A stretch of DNA of 5,328 bases from Deltaproteobacteria bacterium (GTDB lineage: Bacteria; Desulfobacterota; Desulfobacteria; Desulfobacterales; ETH-SRB1): contig JAFCZU010000351.1 in NCBI GenBank assembly GCA_019314185.1, positions 1 through 5,328 of the forward strand, in the 5' to 3' direction. Both the position numbers and the translations under genes were made by a program. A model generated the notes under the pieces. That model worked only from the letters and a program-made list of their open reading frames with translations. It was not told where the DNA came from and ran no database searches. Below, piece after piece: positions 2-5,192 of this stretch (within the stretch, counting starts at the first letter, position 1; each line of letters opens with the position of its first letter).

Positions 2-613
2 GAAGAGGAAGAGAAGAAAAAGAAAATTCTCAAGTTTATGAATGCGGCGGATTTGTCGATTACAGATATCTTTTTGGAGAAAAAAGAATTTTCCACAAAG
101 GACTTGCCCGCCGAAATGCCGCAAAACATTAAAGAAAAAATCAGCAAAGAGCTCGATGTCAAGAAACTGATCAGTCTATTTTTTATGCATCCATCTTCTG
201 ATAAAGGTGAAGATGTGGCTCTTGAATTCGACGAAGAGTCTGCTGGCACTCGCAAGCTTTTTACCCTGGCTGGCCCATGGCTGGATGTCCTGGACAATGG
301 GCTTGTTCTCTTTGTGGATGAACTGGATACAAGCCTGCATCCTCACTTGGTCCGATTCCTTTTGAATCTGTTCTATAACCCCGAAACAAATCGACACAAC
401 GCCCATTTGGTTTTTACTACCCATGATACCACTGTCCTGGATCAAACTCTCATGCGGCGGGATCAGGTATGGTTTGTTGAAAAGGATGCTGAAAATGCCA
501 CCCGCCTCTATCCGCTATCGGATTATAAACCACGCAAGGGCGAAGCCCTGCAAAAAGGTTATTTATACGGCAGGTATGGCGCTTTACCGTTTCCAGGCGA
601 ATTGAGGTTTTGA
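2..613 (+). CDS. AAA15/RloA-family ATPase, C-terminal part (5' end outside window)
   Basis: The frame is open from base 2 through the first ATG (38), so the gene enters from the left and the ATG is internal. About 203 codons remain, roughly the C-terminal half of a protein of this family. Visible ABC/SMC-type ATPase motifs are a signature-like ESAGTRK (236-256), Walker B LVLFVDE (302-322, with the catalytic Glu), the D-loop LDTSLHP (323-343), and the His switch VFTTHD (410-427). The tail RKGEALQKGYLYGRYGALPF is typical of COG1106/AAA15 ATPases (RloA-like). The Walker A half lies upstream of the window. RloA-type ATPases are usually paired with RloB and are found in restriction and anti-phage islands, and the rloB-like start that overlaps this stop codon fits that pairing. 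An acidic-then-basic run (EEEEKKKK) opens the visible part and is probably the linker arm. The family is clear; the biological role is inferred. Confidence 0.9.
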   Translation, partial: EEEEKKKKILKFMNAADLSITDIFLEKKEFSTKDLPAEMPQNIKEKISKELDVKKLISLFFMHPSSDKGEDVALEFDEESAGTRKLFTLAGPWLDVLDNGLVLFVDELDTSLHPHLVRFLLNLFYNPETNRHNAHLVFTTHDTTVLDQTLMRRDQVWFVEKDAENATRLYPLSDYKPRKGEALQKGYLYGRYGALPFPGELRF

Positions 614-906: not shown

Positions 907-1203
907 ATGGCTGAAAGTCGATCTCACAAAACCACAGCAAACCGTATCGCTAAAAAGATGAATACTGAATATAATAACGGAAAGGGCGTCGATATCAAGT
1001 CCAAAAATATAACCATAGAAGTAGAAACTCCAGAAACCGTGGGCGATGCCCTGGGACAGTTACGAGGTTACCGTGGTCCAGCCTTTATTGCCGGCACGAA
1101 CAAAGAAGCCGTCAATAAAGCTATGGAGACAACAAAAGGGACTACGGTTGGCGTTATGGATAACCAAGGACACATCGTAAAGCCGTCGACACGCAAACGA
1201 TAA
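907..1203 (+). CDS. 98-residue basic protein, possible minimal RecB/PD-(D/E)XK-like fold
   Basis: I do not recognise a named family. The start is fixed by the ribosome binding site at 894-902. The first 25 residues are basic and polar (SHKTTANRIAKK). A compact alpha/beta core follows: GVDIKSKNITIEVET (residues 27-41), QLRGYRG (51-57), PAFIAG (58-63), a helix around 64-75, and TTVGVMD (79-85), with a basic tail KPSTRKR. Asp29, then Glu38-x-Glu40, then Gln51-Leu-x-x-Tyr55 resemble the D...(D/E)xK plus QhxxY pattern of RecB-like nucleases. Glu replaces the usual Lys, as in some restriction enzymes such as BamHI. The fold and a nucleic-acid role are inference. There is no signal peptide or membrane segment. 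The gene sits between two copies of a direct repeat and ahead of restriction-modification genes, which suggests a defence accessory role. It may also be non-catalytic. Confidence 0.8.
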   Translation: MAESRSHKTTANRIAKKMNTEYNNGKGVDIKSKNITIEVETPETVGDALGQLRGYRGPAFIAGTNKEAVNKAMETTKGTTVGVMDNQGHIVKPSTRKR

Positions 1204-1415: not shown

Positions 1416-1637
1416 ATGCAAAAGTTATCAGAACATAAAACTGGGCATGAAAAGTTGGATGATTCCATCCGAAACATAATAAGTTCGGCTTTTCAACAGG
1501 TGGGGTACTCTGAAAAAGAAAAGATGCTTCTCCGTGTCTCCGTGATATACGTTTTGTCTGGAAGGGAGAAAAATCCCACGAGGCAGATATGGTGGCCTAT
1601 TCAAGTCCCATACGTCAAGATTCAGATACGGCTGTAA
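1416..1637 (+). CDS. N-terminal piece of the methyltransferase gene, shifted out of frame
   Basis: The ATG is preceded by AGAGAGGT (1401-1408) at good spacing, the best ribosome binding site for this locus. The 73-codon reading is plausible up to ...VLSGREKN (codon 53, near 1574), with amphipathic helices (IRNIISSAFQQVGYSEKEK). It then becomes the unlikely PTRQIWWPIQVPYVKIQIRL. If the run of five A at 1569-1573 had six, the frame would continue SGREKKSHEADMVAYSS into the large ORF that starts at 1589. I therefore take this as the first 52-53 codons of one protein of about 963 residues, not a separate gene. The run is not a canonical -1 slippery heptamer (G AAA AAT), so an indel or sequencing error is likelier than programmed frameshifting. 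If real, the product is a short orphan peptide whose translation would bring ribosomes near the internal ATG at 1589. Confidence 0.6.
   Translation: MQKLSEHKTGHEKLDDSIRNIISSAFQQVGYSEKEKMLLRVSVIYVLSGREKNPTRQIWWPIQVPYVKIQIRL
1580..1591 (+). promoter_or_regulatory. possible internal ribosome binding site and ATG for restart
   Basis: GAGG (1580-1583) stands five bases before the ATG at 1589, inside the upstream overlapping frame. It could allow re-initiation and production of the methyltransferase domain without the first 53 residues and without the presumed nuclease Asp. It is a short match that may be coincidental within EAD codons. Confidence 0.3.
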
Positions 1638-4306
1638 TATCTGTAAAAGGCACGGAAAATACAGACGAAATTCAATTTGATTTAGAAATTTCTCCATTCC
1701 GTGCATTGGCTACACCAGTAATAGTGCTTGCAGAATATAAAAAAATTCGTGGCATGGCCGAATCCAGGGTGATAACAGTAGGCCTGTGTAAAGATGCAGC
1801 TACATTTAAACGGGAAAAAGCAAAAAGCGAAATTATTCCTCTTTCCAGATTTGAAGAATACCTTAGAGATAAACAGCAATTTTTTACGCCACGTCGTTTA
1901 GAAAAAGCGAAGTTTGTTCCCGAACAACTCACGTTGTTTGATATTGCGCCAAACCTTATTGGGCAAGCAATTCAAATTGCTAATAAAGAACTTGTTGGGC
2001 GATTTGAAAAGGGTATCGGGGAAGTATTAAAAACAACAAACGAAAAATACAAACAAAGTGTTATCAATGCGGCTATTGCTATTCTTGGCGCTCGAATTCT
2101 TCGTGACCGATTGAAGGAAAATTGGCCCCTCACATCTGGCGTAGAATTATTGTCTTCTGCCAACAAAATTTTGCCTGAATACTTTAAAATCCCCAAGGGA
2201 ATCGCAAAAAGGCTTGATCCACTTCTCAGTCGGTTGCATTCTGCTTTTGATTTCTCTCAGGTAAGTCTGGACATGGTTGGTAAGTTCTACGCATCAGCTT
2301 TCGTTACAAAAGAGCTTCGCGATCAATGGGGAATTCATTATACGAAATCTTTGTTAGCGAAAACACTTTTGCGACGTATGCCTATAGAAGAGCTTCCTCC
2401 AGACAACCGGATTTTGGCAGATCCAACTTGCGGATCGGGAAGTCTTTTAATGGCAGGGTATGAACGACTTGCGAATGCTACTTATCTCAGCATTCCACGG
2501 GATGAAAGGCATCAACGACTCGTTAGCACCATCTTTGGAAATGACAATGACGAATTTGCGGTCAAGATAGCGCGTATGACTTTGATGTTGTTTCATCCAC
2601 CTCATAAAAACAATTGGAAAGTAACCCATCTGGACGCAGAAAGTAAACAATTTGATAAAAGGTGGGTACAAAAAATAAAAGTTAGGCCAACTATTATTGT
2701 GGCTAATCCGCCCTTTGGTGGGGCAGGTGGGAGTATCTCTCACGCAACCCAACCAAGGACAAGACATCAGCGTGATCGATCTGCTATAATACTAAGCCAT
2801 TGTTTGGATATTCTACCAGAGGGCGGTTTATTAGGCATTATCCTTACTGACACAGTATTAGATCAACAGTTAGTAAAAACAATCAGACATAAGATTTTAA
2901 AGGAATGCCGAATCTTAGAACAGTGGGATATACCGGTGGGATGGTTTGATAATGTGGAACGTCCAGCCATTGCATGGGTTATACGCAAGACCGCCCCTTC
3001 GTCTAAGATGGTTTATGTCCGTTCCCTGTCCGATGTTCCATCCCCCGGGCGAGAGGCAAAATTACAAGGGACTATCCATATTGATGTTACCAGTCCTCCT
3101 GAAAATCTTGTTCCAACAGTTTTTGATGATATTTTATCGAAAATAGAAATGAGTCCAAATCGCATAAAGGATTATTATATTGTGAAAAATGGGCTTCAAC
3201 CTCTCAAAGCTAAGATAAAGGATGAAAAATCTAATACAACACATCCATGGAGTGGTAATGCTAAAGGTACTGATCCGTATTCGGATTTAAGCAGTGATAA
3301 CAATGGATGGTTGGAGCTTATAGACAAAAATTTTAGAATAAGAGCCAGGGGGACAAGTTTACGAAAATATCTGGAAGGTAATGAACCTATGGTGATGCTT
3401 CGTGCAAACCGAAACATACCATGGCAAAATAAATGGAGTTCAGTATCTCTTATCGATGTCCCAAATAAAACGAAGAAAGTTGTGGCTCCATCTGAAAATT
3501 TTGATGCGACCTTTTCCAAAAGCACTAAAATAGTCAACAAGAAAAGATATATATATGCATTATGGGCAGTTTTAAACCACCCACTATCCAGCTTATGGTT
3601 TCATGAGCGACTAAGAGTCCAGAAGATACCAATCAAGAATTATCGCAAAAAATTTCCATTGCCAAGCAACTGGAATATAGAAAAAGTCCAATCATTAGCT
3701 TCTATTGCAAAAAAGCTTATTGATGCAAAGAGAAATATGAGGTCAAAATCGTTGGATGAGCCCCATGACAATCTAAAAATAAAAACCATTGTAAAAAAAA
3801 TTGATGACGTAATCTACCGGATGTATGAAATCACGAAAAGCGATAGGAGCAGAATCGAAGCCTGGTTTGGTGAAGAACAGCGCCCTTTACTGAAGGGTGT
3901 CTGCCAAAGTAAAAAGCCTGATAAAACAAATAACAATGGCAGCCGCATCAATTATGAAGAACCAGAATGGGAAACTACCTGTGAAACATTAGAACTTCGC
4001 TTAAAAGACAACTTAATAAGACTCGTTATGGATGGCCTGATGGACGATTCTGAAGATATTGAATTTGCCGAAGATGGGATCTGGCTGAAAATAATTCCTG
4101 CCATGCCTGGATGGCTTCTGGAGAAGGGAGCCGTGGGCTGGGTAGAACTTACTACGGATAGCGCCAAAAGATTAAAACAATCCCCTGAAAAATATATCGT
4201 TGGATTTCATCTTCATAAGAATGCATACAAGACTCAAGATGAAATTGATAAAGATTTGCAAAGCATTCTTGATACGGAAATAAACAAGGCAGAGGCAAAT
4301 GGGTAA
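1589..4306 (+). CDS. N6-adenine DNA methyltransferase, type IIG-like restriction-modification protein
   Basis: This 905-codon reading carries class I methyltransferase motifs: GIHYTK (residues 248-253, motif X-like), ADPTCGSGSLL (277-287, motif I, SAM binding), GNDND (317-321, acidic motif II), THLDA (346-350), and VANPPFGG (371-378, catalytic NPPF). It should methylate adenine N6 in DNA. Residues about 500-700 (MLRANRNIPW, then HERLRVQKIPIKNYRKKFPLP) look like a specificity domain, followed by IDDVIYRMYEIT (738-749), as in type IIG and Eco57I-like enzymes. The N-terminal part resembles a PD-(D/E)XK nuclease, with Glu49-Tyr-Lys51 after VIVLA and the likely Asp just before Met1, in the HEADMVAY readable only after frame correction. 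A separate C-terminal region (about 790-905) is unrecognised. The true gene probably begins at 1416. The internal ATG has GAGG five bases upstream, so a truncated, methylation-only product is possible. It overlaps the next gene by 8 bases. Confidence 0.9.
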   Translation: MVAYSSPIRQDSDTAVISVKGTENTDEIQFDLEISPFRALATPVIVLAEYKKIRGMAESRVITVGLCKDAATFKREKAKSEIIPLSRFEEYLRDKQQFFTPRRLEKAKFVPEQLTLFDIAPNLIGQAIQIANKELVGRFEKGIGEVLKTTNEKYKQSVINAAIAILGARILRDRLKENWPLTSGVELLSSANKILPEYFKIPKGIAKRLDPLLSRLHSAFDFSQVSLDMVGKFYASAFVTKELRDQWGIHYTKSLLAKTLLRRMPIEELPPDNRILADPTCGSGSLLMAGYERLANATYLSIPRDERHQRLVSTIFGNDNDEFAVKIARMTLMLFHPPHKNNWKVTHLDAESKQFDKRWVQKIKVRPTIIVANPPFGGAGGSISHATQPRTRHQRDRSAIILSHCLDILPEGGLLGIILTDTVLDQQLVKTIRHKILKECRILEQWDIPVGWFDNVERPAIAWVIRKTAPSSKMVYVRSLSDVPSPGREAKLQGTIHIDVTSPPENLVPTVFDDILSKIEMSPNRIKDYYIVKNGLQPLKAKIKDEKSNTTHPWSGNAKGTDPYSDLSSDNNGWLELIDKNFRIRARGTSLRKYLEGNEPMVMLRANRNIPWQNKWSSVSLIDVPNKTKKVVAPSENFDATFSKSTKIVNKKRYIYALWAVLNHPLSSLWFHERLRVQKIPIKNYRKKFPLPSNWNIEKVQSLASIAKKLIDAKRNMRSKSLDEPHDNLKIKTIVKKIDDVIYRMYEITKSDRSRIEAWFGEEQRPLLKGVCQSKKPDKTNNNGSRINYEEPEWETTCETLELRLKDNLIRLVMDGLMDDSEDIEFAEDGIWLKIIPAMPGWLLEKGAVGWVELTTDSAKRLKQSPEKYIVGFHLHKNAYKTQDEIDKDLQSILDTEINKAEANG

Positions 4307-5120
4307 GATACAATATGATTACGAAGCCATATTTGTTGATGTAGGCCAGGGTGACGCTACAATTATACACAACTTGTCAGATATGCATTCTGTTTTAGTT
4401 GATGCAGGTATTCCCAATCCGGTCTTGTCTGTCCTGAAACAACATGCCGAACTTGAAGCGATTTTCATTACACATTGGGATAAAGATCATATTGGCGGTA
4501 TGCCTGCCGTTATTAACTGGATTAAAGATCAACGTCAGAAAGCTGTGAAAGTTTTTGTAAATCGTCAATTTCCATCTTCTAATATTTCAAAAAGACTGCG
4601 CAAGACACTTGATGAAGCATTAGGAAATGGAACAATTATTCATAGCATGGCCTATAAAGACTTTCCAAAGCAGGTTAAGTTGATAGGTGGGACTTTTTTT
4701 ATTTTGTGGCCTTTTCATGAAATCGGATTGCTTTATCCGGATGACAGGAATCTTGATTCAGTAATTCTTCGCTTTGAAATGGAAAAATTCAGTTTGCTTC
4801 TCGGCAGTGATGCTAAAGGGGATGTGTGGCCTCAGCTTGACCGGACCGCACTTAAAGCGGATATTTTTCGGTATCCCCATCATGGAGGGAAGTTATATAA
4901 AAATAAAGATGACTGGTCTGCTGATGAACTCATTTCAAAAGTGAACCCTGATTGGGTTGTGGTATCAGTGGGCAAAAATAATCCACATCGCCATCCTTCT
5001 GAAGAATTCAGGCAAGCAAAATCAAAATATCCGACCATACAGTTTCTTGACACAACCAAAGGTAATATCAGGTTGCAAATAGAAAACTCTACCGGCAATA
5101 TTATTAAGATGAGGGAATAA
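4299..5120 (+). CDS. stand-alone ComEC/Rec2-like metallo-beta-lactamase-fold hydrolase
   Basis: The 273 residues match the metallo-hydrolase domain found at the C-terminus of ComEC/Rec2 competence proteins, here with no membrane segments or signal peptide, so it is a cytoplasmic soluble enzyme. Motifs in order are FVDVGQGDA (12-20), VDAG (34-37), ITHWDKDHIGG (57-67, metal ligands His59, Asp61, Asp63, His64), NLDS (151-154), LLLGSDA (166-172, bridging Asp171), YPHHGG (192-197), and VVSVGKNNPHRHP (221-233). All expected ligands are present, so it should be an active metal-dependent phosphodiesterase or nuclease. The substrate is unknown. The ATG at 4299 overlaps the methyltransferase stop by 8 bases, with AGAGG at 4291-4295, indicating translational coupling. 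Placement between two methyltransferase genes suggests it is the effector or accessory nuclease of a restriction-like system; this is inference. Confidence 0.92.
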   Translation: MGKIQYDYEAIFVDVGQGDATIIHNLSDMHSVLVDAGIPNPVLSVLKQHAELEAIFITHWDKDHIGGMPAVINWIKDQRQKAVKVFVNRQFPSSNISKRLRKTLDEALGNGTIIHSMAYKDFPKQVKLIGGTFFILWPFHEIGLLYPDDRNLDSVILRFEMEKFSLLLGSDAKGDVWPQLDRTALKADIFRYPHHGGKLYKNKDDWSADELISKVNPDWVVVSVGKNNPHRHPSEEFRQAKSKYPTIQFLDTTKGNIRLQIENSTGNIIKMRE

Positions 5121-5192
5121 ATGGCTGAGAAAAAGAAAGGCACACGAGTTGAAGACTACCGTCACGATGAAAAACAAACACACCCCCCATAA
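5121..5192 (+). pseudogene. type III Mod-like DNA methyltransferase gene, 5' stub only
   Basis: The ATG follows the hydrolase stop with no gap (TAAATG), and GAGGG (5111-5115) is well placed, so this is a genuine third gene of the operon. It reads 23 codons, including RVEDYRHDEK followed by PP, then TAA. This resembles the N-terminus of large site-specific DNA methyltransferases of the type III Mod group, which often carry a Y-x-H-D ... NNPP segment before the methylase domain. Identity is lost directly after PP, at the six-C run (5183-5188). Removing one C gives a frame reading HNNLIIHG, reminiscent of the NNLIxGDNL segment of the same family, but it then fails again. Either the gene has been disrupted by deletion or insertion, or the assembly ends in low-quality sequence. 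Family assignment rests on about a dozen residues. Confidence 0.45.

What the first reader, a model, noticed from the sequence alone, without database searches (positions are those of the whole stretch)
1416..5192. Candidate undescribed operon: methyltransferase/nuclease + ComEC-like hydrolase + second (Mod-like) methyltransferase
Three genes are packed with an 8-base overlap and then zero spacing, each with its own ribosome binding site: a type IIG-like N6-adenine methyltransferase, a soluble metallo-beta-lactamase-fold hydrolase with all metal ligands, and a Mod-like methyltransferase start. A ComEC-type hydrolase between two DNA methyltransferases is not the make-up of the standard restriction, BREX, DISARM or Dnd systems as I know them. 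The small RecB-like protein at 907 and the RloA-type ATPase upstream add to the defence context.
Basis: partly seen in the sequence, partly recalled or inferred. Interest (0 to 1): 0.7.

Follow-up and report, generated by a model that had tools for sequence, protein, structure and literature searches.

The report
DNA methyltransferase paired with ComEC-like nuclease
Two overlapping bacterial genes, a DNA-marking enzyme and a compact DNA-cutting-type enzyme, form a pair kept together in distant bacteria, and relatives of the marking enzyme are instead coupled to toxin-like proteins, which suggests an undescribed modular antiviral system.

Summary
An N6-adenine DNA methyltransferase (MTase) overlaps by 8 bases a soluble ComEC-like metallo-beta-lactamase (MBL). 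I read 13 other loci where the two abut, in several phyla and down to about 25% identity. The partners co-diverge, and MBL-linked MTases carry a C-terminal domain of about 100 residues that their relatives lack.

Those relatives abut other effectors: PIN (12 loci), HEPN-like (2), RES (1). At one chromosomal site two genomes share flanks and a 93%-identical MerR regulator, but one carries MTase-MBL and the other MTase-PIN. Several cassettes abut type I, III, IIG or Ssp DNA-modification loci.

Three corrections. In the window the MTase is frameshifted near its start by an 8-base duplication. The "Mod-like methyltransferase" is a 23-codon remnant. No nuclease motif was found in the MTase.

It is not 6A-MBL, MADS, BREX or AVAST by NCBIfam cut-offs, and the MBL lacks the gating insertions of protease-activated MBL nucleases. 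Best reading: a defence module in which the MTase controls a swappable effector, PrrC-like. That function is inferred, not shown.

The parts
1416..1535 (+). First ~40 codons of the MTase gene in their own frame (annotatable only as a 73-aa ORF 1416-1637)
   Evidence: tblastn of intact relative P0122: residues 1-40, 93% identical
1529..1544 (+). 8-base tandem duplication that shifts the MTase frame
   Evidence: two copies here, one in L001 and L183
1589..4306 (+). N6-adenine DNA methyltransferase, main open frame (905 aa); homology in this frame begins at about 1535
2420..2443 (+). MTase motif I (DPTCGSGS, AdoMet binding)
   Evidence: invariant in the 19 rows of A1
2705..2716 (+). MTase motif IV (NPPF, catalytic)
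   Evidence: sequence; NPP[FYW] in 44 of 51 rows of A3, NLP[FYW] only in 6 more
3962..4285 (+). C-terminal extension of the MTase (beta-rich, PGW motif), found only in MBL-linked MTases; candidate docking domain
   Evidence: HMM test, model residues 848-955 of P0122; coordinates by offset from P0122
4299..5120 (+). Soluble ComEC-like metallo-beta-lactamase-fold hydrolase (273 aa), predicted DNase effector
4473..4490 (+). MBL metal motif H-W-D-K-D-H (HxDxDH)
   Evidence: H59, D63, H64 invariant in A4
5121..5192 (+). 23-codon remnant resembling the N-terminus of a type III Mod methyltransferase
   Evidence: compare L188 10135-10314 and L192 5658-8225; likeness judged by eye

Best explanation
The window holds a frameshifted copy of a two-gene defence cassette: a specificity-bearing N6-adenine MTase coupled to a compact ComEC-type MBL nuclease. 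It is one branch of a wider family in which such an MTase is coupled to one swappable effector (MBL, PIN, HEPN-like or RES), often behind a MerR/HTH regulator and in several cases next to DNA-modification systems. Proposed mechanism: the MTase marks and surveys DNA; in the MBL branch its C-terminal domain docks the nuclease and holds it silent or steers it. When the MTase meets unmodified DNA or is blocked by a phage anti-restriction factor, the effector is released, DNA is degraded and infection is aborted. Shown here: gene coupling, conservation, co-divergence, effector exchange, domain-effector match, predicted folds, active-site motifs. Inferred: enzymatic activities, physical docking, trigger, anti-phage effect.
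For: MTase next to MBL in 13 loci besides the window. In one sample of 389 genomes, 7 of the 8 genomes with a soluble-size MBL hit have a family MTase next door. MTase and MBL distances correlate: Spearman 0.897 over 24 pairs and 0.704 over 11 divergent ones, 0 of 2000 permutations as high in each (13 of the 24 pairs, 2 of the 11, were matched only by equal contig length). A C-terminal-domain HMM trained on the window's clade hits 7 of 7 remote MBL-linked MTases, at the C-terminus (E 2e-9 to 0.007), plus the one with an MBL remnant (0.01), and 0 of 16 others below E 1. MBL-linked MTases are one side of a branch, 100/100. MTase-effector gaps lie between -38 and +18 in 28 of 28 listed (values typed from earlier outputs; L184, whose MTase is broken, is not in the list). 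Same-site exchange, MTase-MBL vs MTase-PIN behind a 93%-identical MerR. Defence and R-M neighbours. Precedents: MBL nucleases as effectors (PMC12799240); PrrC held by PrrI (PMC3710099 passages).
Against: No activity, trigger or phage phenotype is known. MBL- and toxin-linked MTases are separate deep branches, so the MBL branch could work as ordinary restriction rather than abortion. The C-terminal domain and MBL may go back to one ancestral event, so the contrast is not made of independent observations; single E-values are modest and L244's match spans only 17 model positions. HEPN assignment is weak (L194 E 2e-4, just under the Pfam cut-off; L229 no Pfam hit but 57% identical to L194's). The family is rare (0 of 274 genomes of the Vibrio class at E 1e-50). 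One soluble MBL (G454/L207) has no family MTase. MTase L237 has no recognised effector. My narrow motif I pattern matched only 21 of 29 MTases. The window copy is itself frameshifted.
Confidence: 0.55

Rival explanations
1. A two-gene restriction-modification system of conventional logic: the MTase protects host sites and the MBL is the cognate endonuclease that cuts unmodified DNA, recruited by the MTase's specificity domain. The PIN/HEPN/RES-linked relatives are a separate system.
For: MTase keeps NPP[FYW] in 29 of 29 locus representatives and a CamA/BseCI-like body; the MBL is nearest to the ComEC domain; MBL-linked MTases form one side of a branch with a dedicated domain.
Against: A related MTase at the same site and behind the same MerR carries a PIN (RNase-type) effector, which plain DNA restriction does not explain. 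Activated HamM of Hachiman cuts DNA indiscriminately (PMC12799240, Results read).
Confidence: 0.25
2. A toxin-antitoxin or element-stabilising module, the effector poisoning cells that lose the MTase, with defence only incidental.
For: Toxin-type effectors, MerR, MqsA/SocA-type or XRE-IrrE regulators upstream in some loci, plasmid copies.
Against: Several copies lie beside housekeeping genes or on megabase contigs; the MTase is far larger than antitoxins (recalled); R-M and defence neighbours recur.
Confidence: 0.13
3. Unrelated genes thrown together in defence islands, with no functional link.
For: Genes beyond the effector vary; the third gene is a remnant.
Against: Overlapping pair kept across phyla, co-divergence and the effector-matched domain.
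Confidence: 0.03

Closest known systems
MBL nuclease-protease pairs of AVAST, Hachiman, Lamassu, DRT and Canu (Tuck et al. 2025, PMC12799240)
   Same: ComEC-like MBL-fold nuclease as an interchangeable effector of defence systems; the window MBL also matches LmuA, RTasMBL and Avs1a models weakly.
   Different: Those studied there are proenzymes with two active-site-blocking insertions and a protease partner. The window MBL is compact (273 aa, 245 residues superpose on the 266-residue ComEC domain, no stretch under pLDDT 50) and its partner is an MTase.
PrrC-PrrI (anticodon nuclease held latent by a type Ic R-M system; PMC3710099 and PMC3506569 passages, PMC2610378 listing)
   Same: Toxin coupled to a DNA-modification enzyme, second line of defence; some HEPN-, PIN- and RES-linked relatives abut R-M loci.
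   Different: Here a single dedicated MTase abuts the toxin, and effectors are exchanged; latency not shown.
6A-MBL system (NCBIfam NF058524)
   Same: ComEC-like MBL in a small operon.
   Different: In four of the five Vibrionaceae loci above the cut-off, which I read, it is MBL + ~600-750 aa protein + a further gene, no family MTase; the window MBL scores 36 of 220 bits.
MADS (methylation-associated defence) and BREX PglX
   Same: N6-MTase domain matches; L240 MerR weakly resembles mad1 (4e-6).
   Different: MTase scores far below cut-offs (46 of 720; 27 of 400; 24 of 500 bits).
Ssp phosphorothioation system
   Same: In L190 a remote MTase-MBL pair lies between sspC and sspD.
   Different: Ssp genes were recognised only there, neighbours elsewhere having been scanned in part; SspE or SspFGH (listing of PMC8092258) are the known partners.

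Membership tests
6A-MBL | MBL protein above NF058524 cut-off (220 bits) | tested here: not met
   36.4 bits
6A-MBL | partner genes as in Vibrionaceae loci above the cut-off | tested here: not met
   L203-L206 show no family MTase; the MBL's neighbour in the window is an MTase
MADS | MTase above NF047738 (MAD2) cut-off | tested here: not met
   46.2 of 720 bits
BREX | PglX above cut-off | tested here: not met
   27.3 of 400 and 23.8 of 500 bits
AVAST type 1 | MBL above Avs1a cut-off | tested here: not met
   20.1 of 420 bits
Protease-gated MBL nuclease | ComEC-like MBL fold | tested here: met
Protease-gated MBL nuclease | two disordered insertions over the active site | tested here: not met
   273 aa, no segment under pLDDT 50; shorter than 6A MBLs of 382-384 aa in alignment. 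Some remote MBLs (346-379 aa) do carry extra segments
Protease-gated MBL nuclease | adjacent protease gene | tested here: inconclusive
   none recognised beside the pairs, but not every neighbour was scanned
ComEC/Rec2 | TIGR00361 cut-off and membrane domains | tested here: not met
   66.9 of 190 bits; only positions 445-660 of 663 matched
Type IIG R-M | PD-(D/E)xK nuclease fused to MTase | tested here: inconclusive
   N-terminal alpha-beta-beta-beta-alpha-beta order, but the acid of ExK is S/A/G/V/T/L, never D/E/Q, in the 50 of 51 rows with a residue there; motif place inferred
Type II R-M pair | cognate endonuclease blocked by the methylation | not testable with these tools
   needs biochemistry
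PrrC-PrrI-like | toxin gene coupled to DNA-modification enzyme | tested here: met
   gap -38 to +18 in 28 of 28 listed
PrrC-PrrI-like | toxin held silent by that enzyme | not testable with these tools
   needs experiment

The most novel reading that the evidence does not exclude
A previously unrecognised class of antiviral system: a DNA methyltransferase that serves as sensor and leash for one exchangeable effector (DNase MBL, RNase PIN or HEPN, RES), with an effector-specific docking domain in the MBL branch, swapped as cassettes at a fixed chromosomal site behind a resident MerR regulator, and able to plug into R-M and phosphorothioation operons.
Probability: 0.4. Interest if true: 0.85.

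Novelty: new variant of a known kind. Interest (0 to 1): 0.72.

Why it matters
Interchangeable effectors are known for CBASS, Avs, retrons and Lamassu (PMC12799240, introduction). A methyltransferase core with exchangeable toxins would extend that logic to DNA modification and give the PrrC-PrrI case a family of small, testable relatives. It would also show a defence MBL nuclease controlled without a protease. The same-site MBL-to-PIN difference and the effector-matched domain give direct experiments.

Tried and rejected
6A-MBL was the obvious name from the NCBIfam hit; reading four of its five loci above the cut-off showed no family MTase. PADLOC PDC-M48B matches MBLs of remote members (1e-9 to 4e-4); it has no paper in the library and its partner gene was not identified here. 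The genome-contig scan with A1 gave 80 loci of which only L001 is a full-length relative; L002-L080 are generic MTases (in the 90 best rows printed they score about 94 bits or less). Viral scans with A1 and A2 gave 41 and 28 loci, of which L145 alone is a family pair in that ranking. L145's MTase found nothing in phages. Two matches, L246 and L254, were dropped as not of the family (model positions 257-785 and 227-782 only); L253 is a fragment; L235 ends before its effector; L237 has no recognised effector; L239 is truncated; L219's PIN is contig-cut and was not scanned. 33 of 91 MBL proteins share a longest-contig length with an MTase: indirect, kept only as support.

Papers: searches (open-licence PMC only) listed no paper that I recognised as describing this pair; seen: PMC12799240 abstract, introduction, Results and passages; passages of PMC3710099, PMC3506569, PMC10853773; the others only as listings. 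A description elsewhere is possible.
Full report
WHAT IS IN THE WINDOW. An MTase ORF (1589-4306, 905 aa) and an MBL ORF (4299-5120, 273 aa) overlap by 8 bases; a further ATG at 5121 abuts the MBL stop but opens only 23 codons. Pfam: N6_Mtase 2e-18 and Eco57I 3e-9; Lactamase_B 3e-6. For these two proteins no NCBIfam model reaches its cut-off and PADLOC matches are partial. The MTase gene really begins at 1416: most full-length relatives are about 930-970 aa, and the two parts of the N-terminus lie in two frames, separated by an 8-base tandem duplication at 1529-1544 that is single in L001 and L183. The window copy is therefore frameshifted; intact copies exist. It may be a mutation, an off state or an assembly fault; I cannot tell which.

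A CONSERVED PAIR. Protein searches gave 136 MBL (120 listed) and 114 MTase proteins, the window's own included. In DNA that I could read, a family MTase directly precedes an MBL in 13 loci: L001/L188 (one genome, MBL split over two contigs), L183, L184 (MTase broken), L185, L186/L187 (MBL interrupted, its end on another contig), L189, L190, L240, L244, L245, L252, plasmid L212 and IMG/VR contig L145. L232 keeps only a 41-residue MBL remnant. In a sample of 389 genomes of the order of G001 (a Desulfobacteraceae MAG), MBL profile A2 hit 22; 14 of these have open frames of 402-934 aa (13 of them 822-934, ComEC size) and 8 have soluble-size frames. Of these 8, 7 (G001, G400, G482, G514, G640, G657, G706) have a family MTase next door; G454 does not. 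MTase profile A5 on that sample gave 19 matches in 16 of 389 genomes: 9 matches (8 loci) MBL, 1 MBL remnant, 5 PIN, 1 HEPN-like, 1 no effector, 1 contig end, 1 truncated. Profile A1 on 395 genomes of the phylum gave 6: G001 and five remote ones, four PIN (L191-L193, L195) and one HEPN-like (L194). Elsewhere A5 gave 3 of 101 (phylum of a Ktedonobacteria genome: two MBL pairs, one not of the family), 3 of 117 (phylum of a Leptolyngbya genome: one MBL pair, one fragment, one not of the family), 1 of 115 (class of a Ruegeria genome: PIN) and 0 of 274 (class of a Vibrio genome, E 1e-50). Distances of the two partners correlate (Spearman 0.897, 24 pairs; 0.704, 11 divergent pairs; 0 of 2000 permutations as high); 13 of the 24 and 2 of the 11 pairs were matched only by equal contig length.

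OTHER EFFECTORS. Relatives of the MTase with the same N-terminal part abut a PIN protein in 12 loci (L191-L193, L195, L209, L211, L219, L233, L234, L236, L238, L248); 11 were scanned and all 11 pass the Pfam PIN cut-off, L219 is contig-cut. They abut a RES protein in L210 (Pfam 1.5e-16) and a HEPN-like protein in L194 and L229 (weak). The MTase of L209 (PIN) is 46% identical to that of L210 (RES), an effector exchange between relatives. A MerR-type gene lies just upstream in eight loci of both branches (MBL: L186, L240; PIN or cut: L192, L219, L233, L234, L235, L236), with a weaker one in L212; L209, L210 and L248 have another regulator-like gene there.

SAME-SITE EXCHANGE. Genomes G657 (L186/L187) and G620 (L233) share a chromosomal site: four pieces over 1.5 kb are 94.0-97.5% identical, the 613-base MerR piece 90.7%. 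The MerR proteins are 93% identical over 150 residues; DNA similarity stops near the MTase start. G657 then has MTase (959 aa) and MBL, G620 has MTase (846 aa) and PIN; these MTases are 23% identical. Similarity resumes after the effector.

EFFECTOR-MATCHED DOMAIN. MBL-linked MTases extend about 100 residues past the end of the others. A profile of this part, trained only on the window's clade, found it at the C-terminus of 7 of 7 remote MBL-linked MTases (L190, L212, L145, L240, L244, L245, L252; E 2e-9 to 0.007), in L232 (0.01), and in 0 of 16 PIN-, RES-, HEPN-linked or effector-less ones below E 1. The E-values are modest and refer to about 30 sequences; L244's match spans 17 positions. Eight of the 16 negatives, and L240, L244, L245 and L252, were fetched after I noticed the domain. 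On a tree of the shared core the MBL-linked MTases are one side of a branch (100/100; rows of unknown effector lie among them), while the other side needs effector changes. The contrast may thus rest on one ancestral event; its persistence is the evidence.

NEIGHBOURHOOD. Window: AbiLi piece upstream. L190: SspB, SspC, MTase, MBL, SspD (PADLOC 2e-92, 0, 1e-101 for the Ssp proteins). L192 and L234: type III Mod and Res after PIN; L191 and L194: type I subunits; L210: a type IIG-like enzyme; L240: Gabija; L209: Shedu; L188: BrxD-like; L193: TmtA. These neighbours were chosen by eye; loci such as L185, L186, L233, L244, L245 and L252 showed no R-M genes that I recognised, and were not scanned through. 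Mod N-terminal remnants follow the effector in L188 (59-aa ORF), L193 (54 residues, 89%) and the window (23); L239 is an MTase fused to a Mod tail and followed by Res.

MECHANISM. Unifying reading: the MTase is a DNA-surveying core and the effector is its weapon. The precedent is PrrC, kept latent by the PrrI R-M complex and released when a phage inhibits it (PMC3710099, PMC3506569 passages). For the MBL branch the predicted act is DNA degradation. Alternatives: conventional R-M with an MBL endonuclease, or toxin-antitoxin maintenance. None of the activities was tested.

NOVELTY. Ten literature searches in open-licence PMC showed no description of this pair that I recognised. Model libraries used: Pfam, NCBIfam June 2026, PADLOC 2023, PHROGs. 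I call it a new variant of modification-coupled defence; if the leash model holds it would be a new class.

Noticed in passing
L190 2728-12136: A remote MTase-MBL pair sits between sspC and sspD of an Ssp phosphorothioation operon, as if it were the operon's restriction partner.
   Followed up: partly
L186/L187 versus L233: Same chromosomal site carries MTase-MBL in one genome and MTase-PIN in the other behind a shared MerR gene; the MBL of G657 looks interrupted near residue 216.
   Followed up: yes
L239 4474-6573: ORF that joins an MTase (to about model position 660) with a Mod tail in nature, followed by nucleotidyltransferase-like, HEPN-like and Res genes: a deletion scar.
   Followed up: partly
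window 907-1203: 98-aa orphan ORF with a strong ribosome-binding-like site; no Pfam, NCBIfam, PADLOC or PHROGs match and no match in other loci held.
   Followed up: partly
window 2-613: C-terminal part of an AbiLi/AAA_21 ATPase, cut by the window edge.
   Followed up: no
P0218, P0220, P0221, P0223: A sub-clade of the MTases has NLPF in place of NPPF at the catalytic motif.
   Followed up: no
L145 6957-11107: MTase-MBL pair on an IMG/VR contig (IMGVR_UViG_2671180531_000009); whether it is a provirus was not checked.
   Followed up: no
L188, L193 and window 5121-5192: A short Mod N-terminus is left behind the effector in three loci with different genes beyond it, perhaps a recombination boundary.
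   Followed up: partly
L248 6920-7408 and L209 7495-7992: A second regulator-like family (54% identical to each other) takes the MerR position in alphaproteobacterial MTase-PIN cassettes.
   Followed up: partly
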